From positions 1 through 5,706 of the forward strand of contig CAMVJE010000080.1 of the NCBI GenBank assembly GCA_947167745.1: a stretch of 5,706 nucleotides of DNA, read 5' to 3'. The notes beneath the pieces are model-generated. The model was not told where the DNA came from, ran no database searches, and was given only the letters and a program-made list of their open reading frames with translations. Both the position numbers and the translations under genes were made by a program. Positions 1 through 5,706 of the stretch are shown piece by piece. Numbering within the stretch: the stretch's first letter is position 1; every line of letters starts with the position of its first letter. The stretch comes from an uncultured Treponema sp. GTDB taxonomy: Bacteria; Spirochaetota; Spirochaetia; Treponematales; Treponemataceae.

Positions 1-796
1 TAGATTCGATAACCCAGAAGTGGAAAAGCTCTGCTGAGTCGAGGAGTTTGTCCTCGTAGCCCAGTTTTTCGCAGAGGTTCTCAGCCTGAGTTTTGCCGTT
101 CTCTTCTTTAGAAAGGAGCGGGAAGTATCCCGGAACGATTCGGTCAACGAGACATGAACAAACATCACAAGCCTCGTCGAACCAGTTGATGAAGTCAGGT
201 CCCAGCTGCCACATTTCAGCGTAGCGGAGGATATTGATTCGGAGGTTGAGGCCGGCCTGGTCTGAAAGTTCACAAGGAATAAGGATCATGCCTTTTGAAA
301 GGTCGCCCTTGAATGCCTGGAATCGTTTGTAAAGGAAAGCTGTAACTTTTGCAGGGAAGTTCTTCTGTGGCTTCTGGTCGAGAGTAACTGGAACGCCGTC
401 GATTTCTGAGTCGAAGCGGATACCAGCCTCAGTTGTGTTAGAAACGATGAAGCGCAAATCTGGGCTTGACGCCAGAGCGATGTATTCGTCGTAGTTTGTG
501 TATGGGTTGATTGAGCGGCTTACTGAGTTGATGCAGCGTGTCTCAACTGTTGGTTTTCCGTCTTTCATGCCGCGGAGAACTGTAGTATAAAGGTTGTCCT
601 GTGCGTTCATCGCATCAATCATGCCTTTTTCGAGTGGCTGAACGATAACGATGTTGCCGTTGAATCCTGCTTTTTCGTTTGCAATATCAATCTGCCAGTC
701 AACGAAAGCGCGCAAGAATCCGCCTTCACCGAACTGCAAGACTTTCTCTGGTCGAGAAACCTTTTTCATTACTTCATTAATTGGTTTAAGAGCCAT
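1..796 (-). CDS. uxaB: Tagaturonate reductase (altronate oxidoreductase), N-terminal part
   Basis: This gene encodes a cytoplasmic NAD-dependent enzyme that interconverts D-tagaturonate and D-altronate, the second step of D-galacturonate breakdown after UxaC. The reading frame is open to the left edge, so 265 N-terminal residues are visible out of roughly 480 in the family. The dinucleotide-binding start is clear: QFGEGGFLRAFVDWQ at residues 21-35, almost the same as I recall for E. coli UxaB. It is followed by SNTTEAGI (119-126), IPCELSDQAG (173-182) and CLVDRIVPGY (215-224), all typical of the mannitol dehydrogenase superfamily. The catalytic Lys/His region lies in the missing C-terminal half, so activity cannot be judged. 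The ATG is supported by a CGGAGG ribosome binding site 9-10 nt upstream. The gene is divergent from the large regulator. UxuB (fructuronate reductase) is the closest alternative, but the N-terminal motif favours UxaB. Confidence 0.93.
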   Translation of the reverse strand, partial: MALKPINEVMKKVSRPEKVLQFGEGGFLRAFVDWQIDIANEKAGFNGNIVIVQPLEKGMIDAMNAQDNLYTTVLRGMKDGKPTVETRCINSVSRSINPYTNYDEYIALASSPDLRFIVSNTTEAGIRFDSEIDGVPVTLDQKPQKNFPAKVTAFLYKRFQAFKGDLSKGMILIPCELSDQAGLNLRINILRYAEMWQLGPDFINWFDEACDVCSCLVDRIVPGYFPLLSKEENGKTQAENLCEKLGYEDKLLDSAELFHFWVIES

Positions 797-867: not shown

Positions 868-929
868 CTCTATGAAAAAGCGTGGATATAAAAAAATGGC
901 AAAAATTATTTGGAAAAAAAATATATAAC

Positions 930-958
930 TTGTAAAAATTCCGTCATCATTATACAAT
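930..958 (+). promoter_or_regulatory. Candidate promoter of the regulator gene, abutting its start codon
   Basis: TTGTAA (930-935), a 17-nt spacer, then TACAAT (953-958). Transcription would begin at about 964-966, essentially on the ATG at 965, so the mRNA would have little or no leader. The two hexamers lie in the arms of an imperfect inverted repeat (TTGTAAAA at 930-937 and TTATACAA at 950-957, seven of eight matching). This could allow autoregulation. No better promoter is apparent in the 168-bp divergent region, but its AT-richness makes chance matches likely. Confidence 0.4.
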
Positions 959-964
959 GGAAAA

Positions 965-3900
965 ATGCAAAATTCCCATGCTGGGCGAAGATTAGGCTTT
1001 ATTCTCTCCACAATTCATGCAGGTTCTGCTCTAAAACTTTGGCACAAGGTTGTTCAGCGGGCGCAGACTGAAAACGGCGCTTTTTTCGTTTTTCCCGGTG
1101 GCAAGCTGGATTCAAAAAGTTCTCGTGAACATCTCAGAAATGACATATATAAACTCGTAAATTCTTCAAATCTTGACGGCCTTGTAAGCTGGGCTTCAAG
1201 TATCAGCGGTTCGGTTTCTGTTCAGGAACTCGAGGAATTCCACAAAAATTTTCATTCCATTCCTTTCGTAACTATCGGTCAAAAAATTCCTGGTCATCCC
1301 TGTGTTGAATTCGACGCATATTCCGGCATGAAGGAGCTTGTCCGCCATTTCATTCAGGTTCACGGTGTCAAAAAAATTGCTTTCCTCCGTGGTCCCGAAA
1401 CACACACTTCTGCTCAGGATCGCTTCCGAGGCTACAAAGATGCCCTTATCGAAGCCGGCTTGGACAACAAGGACAACCAGGCTCTCGTTTCTTCTCCCCT
1501 CAACTGGTACGATGGTGAGCTTGGTGCAAAATGGCTTTACGAAGAAAAAGGGCTTGTTCCAGGCAAGGATTTTGAGGCTCTTCTTTCTGCCAGCGATTTA
1601 ATGACTTTTGCCGCTGTCAATTATTTCAAGCAGCGCGGTATTCGTATTCCAAAAGATTTGCTTGTCGGTGGCTTTAACGACACCGAAGAAAGCCGAATTT
1701 CAATTCCTTCATTTTCAACGGTTCACATGCCTCATGCAGATTTGGGCATCGAAGGCTACGAAAAAATTTCAAACATCTTGAGCGGAATGTTGGGCGTGTC
1801 TGATTCAACTCTCCCCGCCTACCCTGTCATCCGTGAAAGCTGTGGCTGCGTTCATACAAAAATCTGGTCATCTTCAGATTTACATTCAAAAATTCGCTCG
1901 AAAGAACAGTTCCACGAAGAAATTTGCAGAATTTTCCGCATCAATCCCGAGTCTTCTGGCCTTGAACCAATGCTTACTGCCCTGTTTGAGAATGACAAGT
2001 CTAAATTTTACGATTTATTCACTCAGAAGGTTTCTTCATATTTTAAGAATGGCGGCGATCTTCTTAATATTTTTTCTGCCCTTGCACTTTTCCGTTCTGT
2101 AGTGAATATTGCTCCAGAATATATAGAAAAAATTGTGCGCCATGTAACGCTTCTAGTGCCGCGTATTCAGGAACGAGTCTTAATCGAAAAGCAGTATCAA
2201 ATCGAAAAAACAAACAGCATCATCAGCTCCCTAAAAAACATCCTGCTTTCTGTTTTTGACCGCAGCCGGCTTATTCTTGTCCTCAAAGATTACCTGAAAA
2301 AAATCGGTATTCACACTTTTGCGATTGTGCTTTATGAGGATGAGTCATATTCAAATTATATCGGTGGCTCAAATTCCGCAGATGAAATTCGCAATGAAGA
2401 AATCCGTTTTCCTCGTGAATTCCTTGTTCCAGAACGTTTTTCTTCTGATTTTGACCGTGGAGCATACCTCGTTCAGCCCCTTTTTGTTGAAGATTCGTCT
2501 TTCGGATATATAATTTGCAGCTACACTGATTGCCAGGGAATTGTCTATGAGGACTTGCGTTCTTCCATCAGTTCTGTTTTGCAAAGTATTTTCCTTTTTG
2601 AGCAGACTACAGAGGCACGAAGGATTGCCGAGCAGGCTGAATTTGCCAAAACTGAATTTTTTGCCAATGTTGGAAGCGATTTGTGCGACCCCCTCAAAAA
2701 TATCTCGGCCAAGCTGCAGCAAATGGAGTCGAATATCGAGAACGGTGTCAATCGAGAAATCCTCTCGGAACAGCTTATTTTCTTGCGCTCACAAATCGAA
2801 GCCCAGCTCGAAAAAACCGAAACTTTAGTTGATTTAACCCGCTCACAGATAGATGACCTTCCGATGAACAAAAAGCTTTTCGACATCCGGCAGGTTCTTC
2901 CAAGCAGCGTTGCGGCTACCCTTACCCGGGAATTCCCCCTTCTTTACGGAGATTCGGAGCGCTTAAAGCGGGCTTTGCAGACAATTTTCGATTTTTCCGA
3001 AAAAGATCCCTATATTTCAGAGAAGCTGGACGGCGTTCATGTTGAATTCTACTCGAATCGCTTTGACTGGCAAAAACCGGAGCTTCTTCTTGCCGAAAAA
3101 ATCATTCTTCTTCAGTTTGGCGATGTAGAAAAATCTCTCAACTATGCCGAGATAACTTTGCCCTGGCCAAATCTTGCCGGACTTCCTCCGGAGTCTCGTT
3201 CTGCGCAAAGATTTGACTTATACAGTTTCTCAGAAGGTAAAACTGAAAAAAGGCTTGGTCTAGAATCCAAGTATTTCTTTGAGGAAGGTTTCGAGCCTGC
3301 TGATCCAGAGAGCATTGTTTTCCTGTGGGAGCCGGATTCTGCCCCAATCGATGAATGGATAAAGGTTTACAGCCTTCGCCGAAATGAGTCCTTGTTCCGG
3401 GCACCACTTATCTGTTACAGCCACAATCTCATAGGCCACAATTTCAGTGAAATTCTTGAGCAAAAAATAAAAGCCCAGCGTGCCGCTCCAGTTCTTTTCG
3501 TCAATGCAAAGCATACCCGATATGGCTCATGGGCAACAGAATCGAACACGGTTAGTATTGCTTCTATGGAAGAATTTGACGAAATTCTTTCTGAAATTAC
3601 CCCTTCTCTTATTGTATTTGAAGAAGTAAATGAAGAAAGCATACGCCGAATCCGTCAGAATCCAAAAACCGTCCTGGTCCCAATTCTCGTTCTTCCGGAC
3701 AGCATAGAAACCGATGAAGAAATTGAACTCTTGTGTTCGCATCCCCGTATTATCCTTTGCAACAGAGGAGCGGCAGAGTCAGAGCAGTTTGACGAGCGCA
3801 TAAAGGGAATCCTTGCAGGGGACGAAATTCTTCCGCCTCATACGGGCGCATTGGTAAAAAGGGCTATATTGTATTTAAATAGAAACGCCTCTCAGCAGAT

Positions 3901-4156
3901 TGTGCGATGGAAGCTCGCCGATACCGTGCATGTCAGCGAGGACTACCTCACAAGAATCTTCCACAAAGAAATCGGCCTGAGCCTGTGGGAATATTTAAAC
4001 AGATATAGAATATACATTGCGACGAAAATGCTTCTTGAAACCAACGACACGATTTATGAAATCGCGGAAAATTCAGGTTTTCAGGATCAGGCTTATTTCT
4101 GTCGCGTATTTAAAAAAATATATGGGGTGCCGCCGGGAAAAATTCGCTCAAAATAA
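965..4156 (+). CDS. LacI-type sensor / pseudokinase / AraC-type transcriptional regulator
   Basis: A 1063-residue soluble regulator with no signal peptide or membrane segment. Residues 8-290 form a LacI/PBP1-type sugar-binding domain (GFILSTIHAG, HGVKKIAFLRGP, QDRFRGYKDAL, GFNDTEESR) without the LacI HTH, ending in RESCGC (290-295). A mainly helical stretch (300-420) precedes a GAF-like region (about 420-545) and a coiled linker. Residues 556-735 resemble HisKA plus HATPase_c, but Ser571 occupies the phospho-His position (FFANVGSDLCDPL), Phe677 replaces the N-box Asn, and the glycine-rich ATP boxes are missing. Residues 780-950 are receiver-like, without the acidic pair or acceptor Asp. The AraC double HTH occupies 958-1063 (LADTVHVSEDYLTRIFHKEIG; IAENSGFQDQAYFCRVFKKIYG). 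The output domain makes it a DNA-binding regulator, likely of the following transporter operon and perhaps uxaB; its ligand is unknown. The ATG at 965 is the only plausible start despite having no clear Shine-Dalgarno sequence. Confidence 0.88.
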   Translation: MQNSHAGRRLGFILSTIHAGSALKLWHKVVQRAQTENGAFFVFPGGKLDSKSSREHLRNDIYKLVNSSNLDGLVSWASSISGSVSVQELEEFHKNFHSIPFVTIGQKIPGHPCVEFDAYSGMKELVRHFIQVHGVKKIAFLRGPETHTSAQDRFRGYKDALIEAGLDNKDNQALVSSPLNWYDGELGAKWLYEEKGLVPGKDFEALLSASDLMTFAAVNYFKQRGIRIPKDLLVGGFNDTEESRISIPSFSTVHMPHADLGIEGYEKISNILSGMLGVSDSTLPAYPVIRESCGCVHTKIWSSSDLHSKIRSKEQFHEEICRIFRINPESSGLEPMLTALFENDKSKFYDLFTQKVSSYFKNGGDLLNIFSALALFRSVVNIAPEYIEKIVRHVTLLVPRIQERVLIEKQYQIEKTNSIISSLKNILLSVFDRSRLILVLKDYLKKIGIHTFAIVLYEDESYSNYIGGSNSADEIRNEEIRFPREFLVPERFSSDFDRGAYLVQPLFVEDSSFGYIICSYTDCQGIVYEDLRSSISSVLQSIFLFEQTTEARRIAEQAEFAKTEFFANVGSDLCDPLKNISAKLQQMESNIENGVNREILSEQLIFLRSQIEAQLEKTETLVDLTRSQIDDLPMNKKLFDIRQVLPSSVAATLTREFPLLYGDSERLKRALQTIFDFSEKDPYISEKLDGVHVEFYSNRFDWQKPELLLAEKIILLQFGDVEKSLNYAEITLPWPNLAGLPPESRSAQRFDLYSFSEGKTEKRLGLESKYFFEEGFEPADPESIVFLWEPDSAPIDEWIKVYSLRRNESLFRAPLICYSHNLIGHNFSEILEQKIKAQRAAPVLFVNAKHTRYGSWATESNTVSIASMEEFDEILSEITPSLIVFEEVNEESIRRIRQNPKTVLVPILVLPDSIETDEEIELLCSHPRIILCNRGAAESEQFDERIKGILAGDEILPPHTGALVKRAILYLNRNASQQIVRWKLADTVHVSEDYLTRIFHKEIGLSLWEYLNRYRIYIATKMLLETNDTIYEIAENSGFQDQAYFCRVFKKIYGVPPGKIRSK

Positions 4157-4214: not shown

Positions 4215-4259
4215 TTATTGTGCAAAATCTTCTCCTTAAAGTTCGGTTTTGTACAATAA
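4215..4259 (+). repeat. Long inverted repeat between regulator and transporter (operator or leader hairpin)
   Basis: The arms TTATTGTGCAAAA (4215-4227) and TTTTGTACAATAA (4247-4259) are complementary at 12 of 13 positions. The exception would be a G-U pair in plus-strand RNA, and two further inner pairs (U-G and C-G) can extend the stem to 15. The loop is about 15-19 nt. As DNA, each arm holds a near-palindromic box (TTGTGCAA at 4218-4225, TTGTACAA at 4249-4256) with starts 31 bp apart, about three helical turns. This suits a pair of operator sites on one face of the helix. It is not a standard terminator on the plus strand, because the only nearby T run (4270-4274) comes 10 nt after the stem. 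Confidence 0.6.
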
Positions 4260-4323: not shown

Positions 4324-5265
4324 ATGAACGCAAAAGAAACAAATGTTTTAGCTGCACCGAAAAAGGATCTCTGGAAAAACGTTAAGAGACATTTTTCGGT
4401 CTATGCACTTCTTGTCATTCCTGTCGTGTACTATGCTATCTTAAAGTATGGTCCGATTGTTAATGGTCAGATTGCATTCAAGAATTTCGAGCCGGTAGAC
4501 GGCGTATGGGGAAGTGTTTGGGTTGGCTTCAAAAACTTCAGCACATTCATCCATTCGTTCTACTTTGGCGAACTTATGAGGAACACAATTCTTTACAGCT
4601 TGGCAAAGCTCGTTGTGTCAGTTCCGTTGTCAATCATCCTGTCGGTTGCACTGTATGAATGTACGCACAATGTTCTTCGTCGTGTCGTTCAGACTTTAGC
4701 TTACTTACCGCACTTCCTTTCTTGGGTTATCATGTACGGTATTCTTCTTATTTTGTTTGCAAAAGGTGACGGTCTCGTTAACCAGGTTATCGAGAGCGCC
4801 GGCGGTGCTTCAAAAGACTTCCTTACAAACACAAGCGTATTCCCAATCATGGTTGTCCTTTCAGACGCATGGAAGGAAATGGGTTGGGCAGCAATCATCT
4901 TTATCGCAGCTCTCATGGGTATCGATCCTTCTTTGTTCGAGGCTGCCATGGTAGAGGGTGCTTCTGCTGTTCAGCGTGTTTGGTACATCACTATTCCTTC
5001 AATCAAACCAGTTATCGTTACCGTAGTTCTTCTTAAGCTCGGTACCGTTCTTGATGCCGGATTCAACCAGATGTTCATGTTGTATTCACCGGCTGTTTAT
5101 CGAGTTGCTGATATCATCGATACATGGGTTTACCGACAGGGTCTTCTTGAATTCCAGTTTGCTCTTGCAACTGCTGTCGGTATCTTCAAAGGTGTAATCG
5201 GTATGATTCTTGTTATGGTTTCTAACAAAGTCGTTAAGAAGTTGACTGAATCATCACTCTTGTAA
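4324..5265 (+). CDS. ABC sugar transporter permease, LplB/YteP type
   Basis: An inner-membrane permease of 313 residues, the usual length for the CUT1 LplB/YteP group (binding-protein-dependent transport component, MalF-like role). A cytoplasmic N-terminus is followed by a first membrane segment at about 24-41, then the family-typical LKYGPIVNGQIAFKNFEP and WVGFKNF. Further hydrophobic segments lie near 88-111, 131-146, 172-197, 229-243 and 280-300. The EAA loop that docks with the ATPase is clear: EAAMVEGASAVQRVWYITIP at 206-225, with Gly212. The YteP-like stretches QTLAYLPHFLSWVI and FQFALATAVGIFKGVIGMILVM support the subgroup. B. subtilis YteP and relatives import rhamnogalacturonan-derived or other complex oligosaccharides, which fits the neighbouring uxaB, but the substrate cannot be read from a permease alone. 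The next permease gene follows after 16 nt. Confidence 0.92.
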   Translation: MNAKETNVLAAPKKDLWKNVKRHFSVYALLVIPVVYYAILKYGPIVNGQIAFKNFEPVDGVWGSVWVGFKNFSTFIHSFYFGELMRNTILYSLAKLVVSVPLSIILSVALYECTHNVLRRVVQTLAYLPHFLSWVIMYGILLILFAKGDGLVNQVIESAGGASKDFLTNTSVFPIMVVLSDAWKEMGWAAIIFIAALMGIDPSLFEAAMVEGASAVQRVWYITIPSIKPVIVTVVLLKLGTVLDAGFNQMFMLYSPAVYRVADIIDTWVYRQGLLEFQFALATAVGIFKGVIGMILVMVSNKVVKKLTESSLL

Positions 5266-5281: not shown

Positions 5282-5706
5282 ATGGAAAAACCAAAGACAG
5301 TAAAATTAACATCAGGCGACCGCGCATTTTATATCGGTGTAAACACTTTCCTTGCTTTCATCGGTATCATTATTGCTATCCCTATCATCAGTACAATTTC
5401 TTCTTCTGTAACTCCTAACGGTTACATCGGAAGTACATTCGATAAATTCATCCTCATGCCATGGAAGTGGGATGGTTCTGCATACAAGGCTTTGCTTGGA
5501 AACAACGGTTTCACCCTTGCTTTCTGGAACTCAATCAAAATCATGCTTTTCGGTGTAGTAACAGCTTTGGCTCTTACTGTTCCAATGGCATATTGTATGT
5601 CAGTACAGGATTTGCCAGGACGCAAAATCCTCAACTACTTCGTACTTGTTCCTTATTTGTTCAACATTGGTGTTATCCCAACATTCTTGGTTGTAACAAA
5701 TCTTCA
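5282..5706 (+). CDS. ABC sugar transporter permease, LplC/YtcP type, N-terminal part
   Basis: The second permease of the same importer (MalG-like role in the CUT1 family), open at the right edge. 141 residues are visible of about 290-300. The first membrane segment spans about 16-39 (FYIGVNTFLAFIGIIIAIPI), followed by an extracytoplasmic loop. A second hydrophobic segment at about 80-104 contains FWNSIKIMLFGVVTALALTVPMAYCMS. The stretch DLPGRKILNYFVLVPYLFNIGVIPTFLVV (in pieces from residue 110 to 138) is typical of LplC/YtcP permeases. The EAA loop would lie beyond the window, so it cannot be checked. Transporters of this type usually have a solute-binding lipoprotein gene next to the permeases and often borrow a shared MsmX-like ATPase. 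Neither is in the window, and the binding protein probably lies downstream. Confidence 0.9.
   Translation, partial: MEKPKTVKLTSGDRAFYIGVNTFLAFIGIIIAIPIISTISSSVTPNGYIGSTFDKFILMPWKWDGSAYKALLGNNGFTLAFWNSIKIMLFGVVTALALTVPMAYCMSVQDLPGRKILNYFVLVPYLFNIGVIPTFLVVTNL

What the first reader, a model, noticed from the sequence alone, without database searches (positions are those of the whole stretch)
2630..3169. A histidine-kinase-like module with its catalytic residues missing inside a one-component regulator
Residues 556-735 of the regulator follow the order of a HisKA-HATPase_c pair: a coiled lead-in, FFANVGSDLCDPLKNI in place of the usual SHELRTPL box, a long helical hairpin, YGDSERLKRAL before the N box, and EITLPWP near the end, like the closing strand of HATPase_c. 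The phospho-accepting His is Ser571. The N-box Asn positions are Thr673 and Phe677, and no glycine-rich G1/G2 boxes are seen. The module therefore probably cannot bind ATP or phosphorylate. It may persist as a dimerisation and signal-relay scaffold linking sugar binding to the AraC HTH. This would be a XylR-like regulator with a dead hybrid two-component core, a possible evolutionary step from phosphorelay to allosteric relay.
Basis: partly seen in the sequence, partly recalled or inferred. Interest (0 to 1): 0.72.

Follow-up and report, generated by a model that had tools for sequence, protein, structure and literature searches.

The report
Sugar-acid regulator with dead kinase core
A gene-control protein of gut spirochaetes keeps, between its sugar sensor and its DNA-binding end, the folded remains of a whole phosphate-relay machine that lost its chemistry but is still conserved, so it probably passes its signal by shape change alone.

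Summary

The decay reaches further: 838-957 is a receiver fold without catalytic residues, and 736-841 may be a second receiver relic. The same architecture with intact HisKA, HATPase_c, Response_reg and AraC domains exists (P0244). P0243, with live-looking kinase and failing receiver, is sister to the kinase-dead group in a sensor tree (100/100). So the protein descends from a soluble hybrid two-component regulator and became, it seems, a one-component one.

Neighbouring uxaB and sugar ABC transporter genes point to hexuronate (pectin) use. Allosteric relay through the dead core is inferred, not shown. No earlier description turned up in the searches made.

The parts
965..4156 (+). regulator gene, 1063 aa plus stop
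   Evidence: proteins P0001-P0003, 99% identical
965..1861 (+). residues 1-299, LacI-type periplasmic-binding-protein-like sugar sensor; no hydrophobic segment of membrane or signal-peptide strength
   Evidence: Peripla_BP_3 E 8.7e-17; highest 19-residue Kyte-Doolittle mean 1.52 in the whole protein, 0.92 in the first 45 residues
1862..2197 (+). residues 300-411, variable linker, helical by its alignment pattern only
   Evidence: high column entropy; no convincing family match
2198..2599 (+). residues 412-545, GAF-like domain; the GAF label is by eye only
   Evidence: conserved block; no GAF match in Pfam or PDB profile searches
2600..2884 (+). residues 546-640, pseudo-DHp helical hairpin; Ser571 (2675-2677) in the phospho-His column
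2885..3169 (+). residues 641-735, contracted pseudo-CA domain; Thr673 (2981-2983) and Phe677 (2993-2995) replace the N-box Asn; 707-719 (3083-3121) is the former G2 helix; lid and G1 absent
3170..3487 (+). residues 736-841, probable relic of a first receiver domain (weak)
3488..3835 (+). residues 842-957, pseudo-receiver (REC fold); phospho-Asp column is Glu886 (3620-3622), Lys column is Asn933 (3761-3763)
3842..4153 (+). residues 960-1063, AraC-type DNA-binding domain
   Evidence: HTH_18 E 1e-20; the most conserved part of the family
908..938 (+). candidate operator: direct repeat ATTTGGAAAA / CTTGTAAAAA, about 20-21 bp apart
   Evidence: binding untested
930..958 (+). candidate promoter TTGTAA-17-TACAAT ending 6 bases before the ATG
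   Evidence: 3 promoter-like sites in 201 bases against 0.9 expected
4244..4259 (+). conserved element CGGTTTTGTACAATAA before the permease gene
2..796 (-). uxaB, tagaturonate reductase (partial), divergent; start taken at the inner ATG as in homologues
   Evidence: NF002969 E 2.2e-99; homologues
4324..5265 (+). sugar ABC transporter permease
   Evidence: BPD_transp_1 E 4.6e-11
5282..5706 (+). second ABC permease (partial)

Best explanation
The protein is a one-component transcription regulator derived from a soluble hybrid two-component regulator. In the inferred ancestor, a LacI-type sensor and a GAF-like domain drove a DHp-CA histidine kinase, which phosphorylated receiver domains holding an AraC DNA-binding domain. 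In the window's family the kinase lost its His, N-box Asn and ATP lid, and the receiver lost its Asp-Lys pair, yet the folds stay under purifying selection. Shown here by computation: homology, predicted fold, loss of residues, intact and intermediate relatives, linked hexuronate genes. Inferred: a galacturonate-derived ligand binds the sensor; the change passes down the DHp coiled-coil dimer; the pseudo-CA and pseudo-receivers act as mechanical parts that release or pair the two AraC domains on repeated sites by uxaB, the regulator and the transporter, with no phosphoryl transfer.
For: Fold and profile. Family-wide loss in 291 distinct homologues: column 571 is S117 E82 N40 D22 A8 T5 G5 V3 H3 K2 I2 L2; the N-box columns hold Asn in 8 and 13, both together in 0; GxGLG in 0; receiver Asp column Glu 141, Asp 55; receiver Lys column Asn 221, His 66, Asp 4, Lys 0. 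The scaffold stays: F565 286/291, P576 287/291, D663 290/291. Live-looking relatives: P0244 has HisKA E 2.4e-16, HATPase_c 2.1e-29, Response_reg 1.6e-17 and HTH_18 6.8e-23; P0243 has HisKA and HATPase_c but no Response_reg match; P0246 has HisKA (His to Asp), Response_reg 2.2e-4 and HATPase_c only 0.097. Tree: P0243 is sister (100/100) to a group of 42 (100/98), 41 kinase-dead AraC proteins and one swapped live kinase. Purifying selection in the least saturated pair, L055-L057: dN/dS DHp 0.064, CA 0.098, REC 0.103, sensor 0.030, AraC 0.021. A related sensor is fused straight to an AraC domain in L091-L094, so a phosphorelay is not needed between such ends. One full-length copy in each of 7 of 7 genomes searched.
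Against: No experiment. ATP binding and dimerisation were not measured, and no multimer was modelled. Three members (L032, L037, L050) have His in the acceptor column, and 55 of 291 keep Asp in the receiver Asp column (though without the Lys), so control by phosphate from outside is not excluded for all members. Some pairs are looser: L003-L023 CA 0.18; L076-L079 CA 0.25, REC 0.25, GAF-like 0.47; and dS is saturated in many comparisons. The receiver and first relic are less conserved than the ends in most pairs. The sensor-AraC fusions sit beside other live kinases in the tree, not beside the family. The operator and ligand are guesses from context.
Confidence: 0.72

Rival explanations
1. The dead core is only a dimerisation rod: it brings two AraC domains together constantly, and ligand acts elsewhere (for example by direct contact of sensor and AraC domain, as recalled for XylR).
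For: Sensor-AraC proteins without any kinase core exist in Treponema genomes (L091-L094). By identity the DHp is the best or equal best conserved core part in 5 of 6 Treponema pairs.
Against: A pure rod would not need a CA and one or two receiver folds, which are kept in length and predicted fold and mostly under purifying selection.
Confidence: 0.15
2. The core is a DivL-like receiver of another system: it binds a partner response regulator or kinase, so phosphorylation elsewhere tunes this regulator.
For: DivL, a known pseudo-histidine kinase, binds a phosphorylated response regulator (PMC4211667, abstract and one section read) and is among the profile and fold hits. Three members have His in the acceptor column.
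Confidence: 0.09
3. The core is simply decaying and has no function.
For: Catalytic residues are lost and the first receiver relic is the least conserved part in several pairs.
Against: 291 distinct homologues over 950 aa with open frames, low dN/dS in most measurable comparisons, near-invariant structural residues.
Confidence: 0.04

Closest known systems
Hybrid two-component systems (HTCS) of Bacteroides
   Same: Sensor, DHp, CA, receiver and AraC domain in one chain; control of plant-polysaccharide genes (PMC11253607, passages read).
   Different: HTCS contain a membrane sensor kinase (abstract start seen) and work by phosphotransfer. Here no hydrophobic segment of membrane strength is seen, and kinase and receiver have lost their catalytic residues.
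XylR of E. coli (LacI-type sensor fused to AraC domain)
   Same: LacI-type sugar sensor at one end (recalled), AraC domain at the other; the AraC domain of XylR is among the PDB hits, 4fe4 and 4fe7.
   Different: The XylR chains are 392-412 aa with, as recalled, nothing between the ends. Here about 660 residues lie between, including the dead kinase and receiver.
DivL of Caulobacter (pseudo-histidine kinase)
   Same: DHp-CA fold without the acceptor His and without kinase activity; fold and profile hit 4q20.
   Different: DivL has Tyr at the His position and still has an ATP lid. It senses a separate response regulator. Here the lid is deleted and a dead receiver and DNA-binding domain are fused on.
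P0244, unnamed metagenome protein, 1196 aa
   Same: Same order: sensor, GAF-like, HisKA, HATPase_c, receiver-like stretch, Response_reg, AraC domain.
   Different: All catalytic motifs of kinase and second receiver can be read in its sequence.

Membership tests
Active histidine kinase (HisKA + HATPase_c) | DHp-CA fold | tested here: met
Active histidine kinase (HisKA + HATPase_c) | phospho-acceptor His | tested here: not met
   Ser571; His in 3 of 291 homologues
Active histidine kinase (HisKA + HATPase_c) | N box, G1, lid and G2 motifs of the ATP site | tested here: not met
   Thr673, Phe677; lid, G1 and G2 glycines absent in the alignment with P0244; 0 of 291 with both Asn, 0 with GxGLG; no HATPase_c match in the window's protein or 8 relatives
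Hybrid two-component system (HTCS) | sensor, kinase core, receiver, AraC domain in one chain | tested here: met
   kinase core and receiver by predicted fold
Hybrid two-component system (HTCS) | receiver with phosphorylatable Asp and conserved Lys | tested here: not met
   Glu886 and Asn933; 0 of 291 with both Asp and Lys
Hybrid two-component system (HTCS) | phosphotransfer from kinase to receiver | not testable with these tools
   needs purified protein; the sequence argues against it
Pseudo-histidine kinase | kinase fold with acceptor His lost across the family | tested here: met
Pseudo-histidine kinase | retained cellular function without kinase activity | not testable with these tools
   only purifying selection is shown
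XylR-type LacI-AraC regulator | LacI-type ligand domain plus AraC DNA-binding domain | tested here: met
XylR-type LacI-AraC regulator | sensor and AraC domain joined directly (recalled) | tested here: not met
   about 660 residues between them
GAF domain | match to a GAF profile | tested here: inconclusive
   no GAF match in Pfam or PDB profile searches; fold of this part was not predicted
Response regulator receiver (residues 736-841) | REC fold | tested here: inconclusive

The most novel reading that the evidence does not exclude
A whole clade of Spirochaetota regulators was converted from an intramolecular phosphorelay to a purely allosteric one-component regulator while keeping every folded part of the relay. 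The conversion can be followed in living relatives: all parts live (P0244), live kinase with failing receiver (P0243), His lost and ATP lid deleted (deep branch and Sphaerochaeta), motifs unrecognisable to Pfam (the window's protein). A separate loss (P0246) and a re-gain of a live kinase by domain swap (L149) would show that the two modes can replace each other behind one sensor.
Probability: 0.65. Interest if true: 0.78.

Novelty: new variant of a known kind. Interest (0 to 1): 0.63.

Why it matters
How regulators move between one-component and two-component modes is mostly argued from lists of architectures (my own view of the field, recalled). Here one architecture exists in live-looking, half-live and dead forms with a largely resolved sensor tree, so the question whether a kinase and receiver can work as a mechanical relay without phosphate becomes a direct test with natural proteins. 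It also shows that domain profiles miss the core: Pfam reports only the two ends of the window's protein, and a relative without the His (P0158) carries the name histidine kinase in one source.

Tried and rejected
Pseudogene: rejected, because frames are open and mostly under purifying selection. A shifted His elsewhere in the box: not seen as a pattern; 4 of 291 rows have a His within residues 562-577 but not at the acceptor place (P0167, P0194, P0195, P0202). Chance likeness of a coiled coil to DHp: rejected by the CA fold and by the profile hits. Two-receiver reading of 736-841: kept only as probable, since its own model gives no clear fold match and profile-profile comparison with the second receiver is weak (13% probability, 29 columns). 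GAF assignment: not confirmed; 'GAF', 'REC2' and so on are names that I gave to my own profiles. A plasmid search with a distant relative matched 1393 records, none over 80% of the query; the 20 shown match the sensor part. Paper searches listed no description of this family; I saw listings, plus passages of PMC11253607, PMC9491836, PMC9430884 and PMC9239204 and the outline, abstract and one section of PMC4211667; the library lacks most subscription journals. Dropped rows: L077, no open frame over 800 aa; 19 of 310 entries as duplicates or 950 aa or shorter, among them L039, L053, L054, L056 and L062, whose starts my script probably put too late where the start codon is not ATG. Those rows are in the 80-row counts. 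The 67-row tree used rows that I picked; it has long branches (L130, L128, L144 and others) and a midpoint root, and P0246 may sit beside P0244 for want of closer relatives. In one search two rows (L056, L060) were cut at the wrong place by my script and are not used. The acceptor column was read for 11 of the 12 deep proteins P0231-P0242; my pattern missed P0237. The organisms of P0243, P0244 and P0246 are unknown to me.

Full report
What is there. The window holds one complete gene, 965-4156 on the + strand, for a 1063-residue protein, between a divergent, partial uxaB (tagaturonate reductase, NF002969 E 2.2e-99) and two sugar ABC permease genes, the second cut by the window end. Above its cut-offs Pfam sees only the ends: Peripla_BP_3 at 127-293 (with overlapping Peripla_BP_1) and the AraC-type HTH_18 at 984-1062. 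The closest fetched loci, 99.2-99.3% identical in DNA, are MAG contigs labelled Treponema sp. (L006, L007). Relatives that bear a name are Spirochaetota, apart from one MAG labelled Bacteroides sp. (P0120).

What is missing. In the aligned series P0244 reads ANVSHEMRTPL, NLLSNAVKFT, EDTGVGIP and GVGLGLAI. The window reads ANVGSDLCDPL, TIFDFS, nothing, and ELLLAEKI. The stretch between N box and G2 is deleted, and the CA equivalent (640-735) has a median of 96 residues in 80 rows (90-124). Across 291 distinct homologues longer than 950 aa (310 entries, 19 dropped) the acceptor column is S117 E82 N40 D22 A8 T5 G5 V3 H3 K2 I2 L2. The N-box columns hold Asn in 8 and 13, both together in none, and no row has a GxGLG motif there. 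By contrast F565 is kept in 286, P576 in 287 and D663 in 290. The three His rows (L032, L037, L050) have no Asn in either N-box column. Pfam HisKA is matched by 18 of 80 members at E<=1 (HATPase_c is not among the 25 of 36 families shown) and is in the precomputed Pfam column for 7 of the 120 proteins listed, none of which has the His.

Living relatives. A search with the sensor and DHp of a deep relative (L115, residues 1-660; 22 proteins at E<=0.001) found P0244, whose Pfam matches are Peripla_BP_3, HisKA 2.4e-16, HATPase_c 2.1e-29, Response_reg 1.6e-17 and HTH_18 6.8e-23, with the motifs readable. P0243 keeps His, N box, D box and G2, but its receiver has lost part of the acidic pair and the Lys. 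P0246 has Asp in the His column and a shrunken CA. In the deep dead group the acceptor is Gln, Ser, Thr, Ala, Ile, Val or Gly in 11 of the 12 proteins P0231-P0242 (P0237 not read), and Asn in L130. A sensor-only tree of 67 rows that I picked puts P0243 as sister (100/100) to a group of 42 rows (100/98): 41 kinase-dead AraC proteins and one live hybrid kinase, L111. P0244 pairs with P0246 outside (99/87). The root is at the midpoint. The plainest reading is one loss on the stem of the dead group and another in P0246.

A sensor cassette with many outputs. In a sample of 296 Spirochaetota genomes, 35 have a match to the linker and GAF-like profile at E<=1e-5; 18 match at E<=3.5e-31. Frames read from these and from seven genomes reached through my loci carry hybrid kinases with recognisable HisKA, HATPase_c and Response_reg (L129, L132, L135, L137, L149), kinases with or without receiver (L089, L121, L126), GGDEF (L123), chemotaxis signalling domains (L088, L119), or the AraC domain directly after the sensor (L091, L092; L093 and L094 by my own profile). 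L149 (the same gene as L111) is telling: its sensor falls inside the dead family in the tree, yet Pfam finds HisKA, HATPase_c and Response_reg and no AraC domain, which points to a swap of the output half. Among the AraC-bearing proteins with a core that I examined, only P0243 and P0244 look live.

Selection and copy number. Each of 7 genomes searched has exactly one full-length copy. Of 10 pairs compared, many comparisons have saturated dS. In the least saturated pair (L055-L057) dN/dS is 0.030 sensor, 0.064 DHp, 0.098 CA, 0.127 first relic, 0.103 receiver, 0.021 AraC. In window-L009 the CA is 0.047 and the receiver 0.028, with dS 1.9 and 3.1. L003-L023 has CA 0.18, and L076-L079 is looser (CA 0.25, receiver 0.25, GAF-like 0.47). 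The dead core is constrained, if in that pair less than the ends.

Function. Among 79 family loci (L007 itself included), a UxaB homologue lies in 40, the two permeases in 48 and 50, and the solute-binding protein in 46, at BLASTP E<=1e-10 anywhere in the locus, with many loci cut short by contig ends. A distant locus of the Sphaerochaeta branch (L056) has uxaC (glucuronate isomerase, E 1.8e-177), a galactarate-dehydratase-family gene below that model's cut-off (1.7e-82, by pathway probably altronate dehydratase) and uxaB (6.6e-196) in a row on the side of the regulator, and the window's kin L007 adds a 2-keto-3-deoxygluconate-kinase-like gene. This is the hexuronate pathway (pathway knowledge recalled), so the regulator most likely serves galacturonate or pectin-fragment use. 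The protein has no hydrophobic segment of membrane strength (highest 19-residue Kyte-Doolittle mean 1.52), so it is probably cytoplasmic. The gap before the gene holds a repeat ATTTGGAAAA / CTTGTAAAAA 20-21 bp apart. A TTGTAA-17-TACAAT promoter ends 6 bases before the ATG; a similar pattern is found in 18 of 38 gaps, 6 bases away in 7 of them, some from near-identical loci. An element like CGGTTTTGTmCAATAA precedes the permease gene in 20 of 53 gaps, the window included. Binding is untested.

Mechanism and standing. Homology, predicted fold, loss and relatives are shown by computation. That ligand binding is passed as a shape change through the dead core to the AraC domains is inference, resting on conserved folds, on sensor-AraC fusions that do without a relay, and on the precedent of DivL, which lacks kinase activity and is thought to act by allostery (PMC4211667, outline, abstract and one section read). 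In Bacteroides hybrid systems a contact of receiver and AraC domain holds DNA binding down, and breaking it allows binding without phosphorylation (PMC11253607, passages read); the same kind of contact could be worked mechanically here. Pseudo-histidine kinases and LacI-AraC regulators are known kinds. A regulator spread through Spirochaetota in which kinase and receiver both died behind a still conserved frame, with live-looking and half-live relatives, was not found in print in the searches listed. I call it a new variant of a known kind.

Noticed in passing
window 930-964: Candidate promoter TTGTAA-17-TACAAT ends 6 bases before the ATG, and the same spacing recurs in 7 of 38 gaps (some near-identical), which would give a leaderless transcript.
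   Followed up: partly
window 4244-4259: Conserved element like CGGTTTTGTmCAATAA before the permease gene in 20 of 53 gaps, window included; a possible operator.
   Followed up: partly
L149:2978-6706: A sensor nested in the dead family is fused to a hybrid histidine kinase with intact-looking HisKA, HATPase_c and receiver: apparent output-domain swap.
   Followed up: partly
L091, L092, L093, L094: A related sensor is fused directly to an AraC domain in genomes that also carry the window's family.
   Followed up: partly
L032, L037, L050: Treponema MAG members have His in the acceptor column, without N-box Asn.
   Followed up: partly
L088, L119, L123, L129: The sensor cassette also occurs with chemotaxis signalling, GGDEF and SpoIIE outputs.
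   Followed up: no
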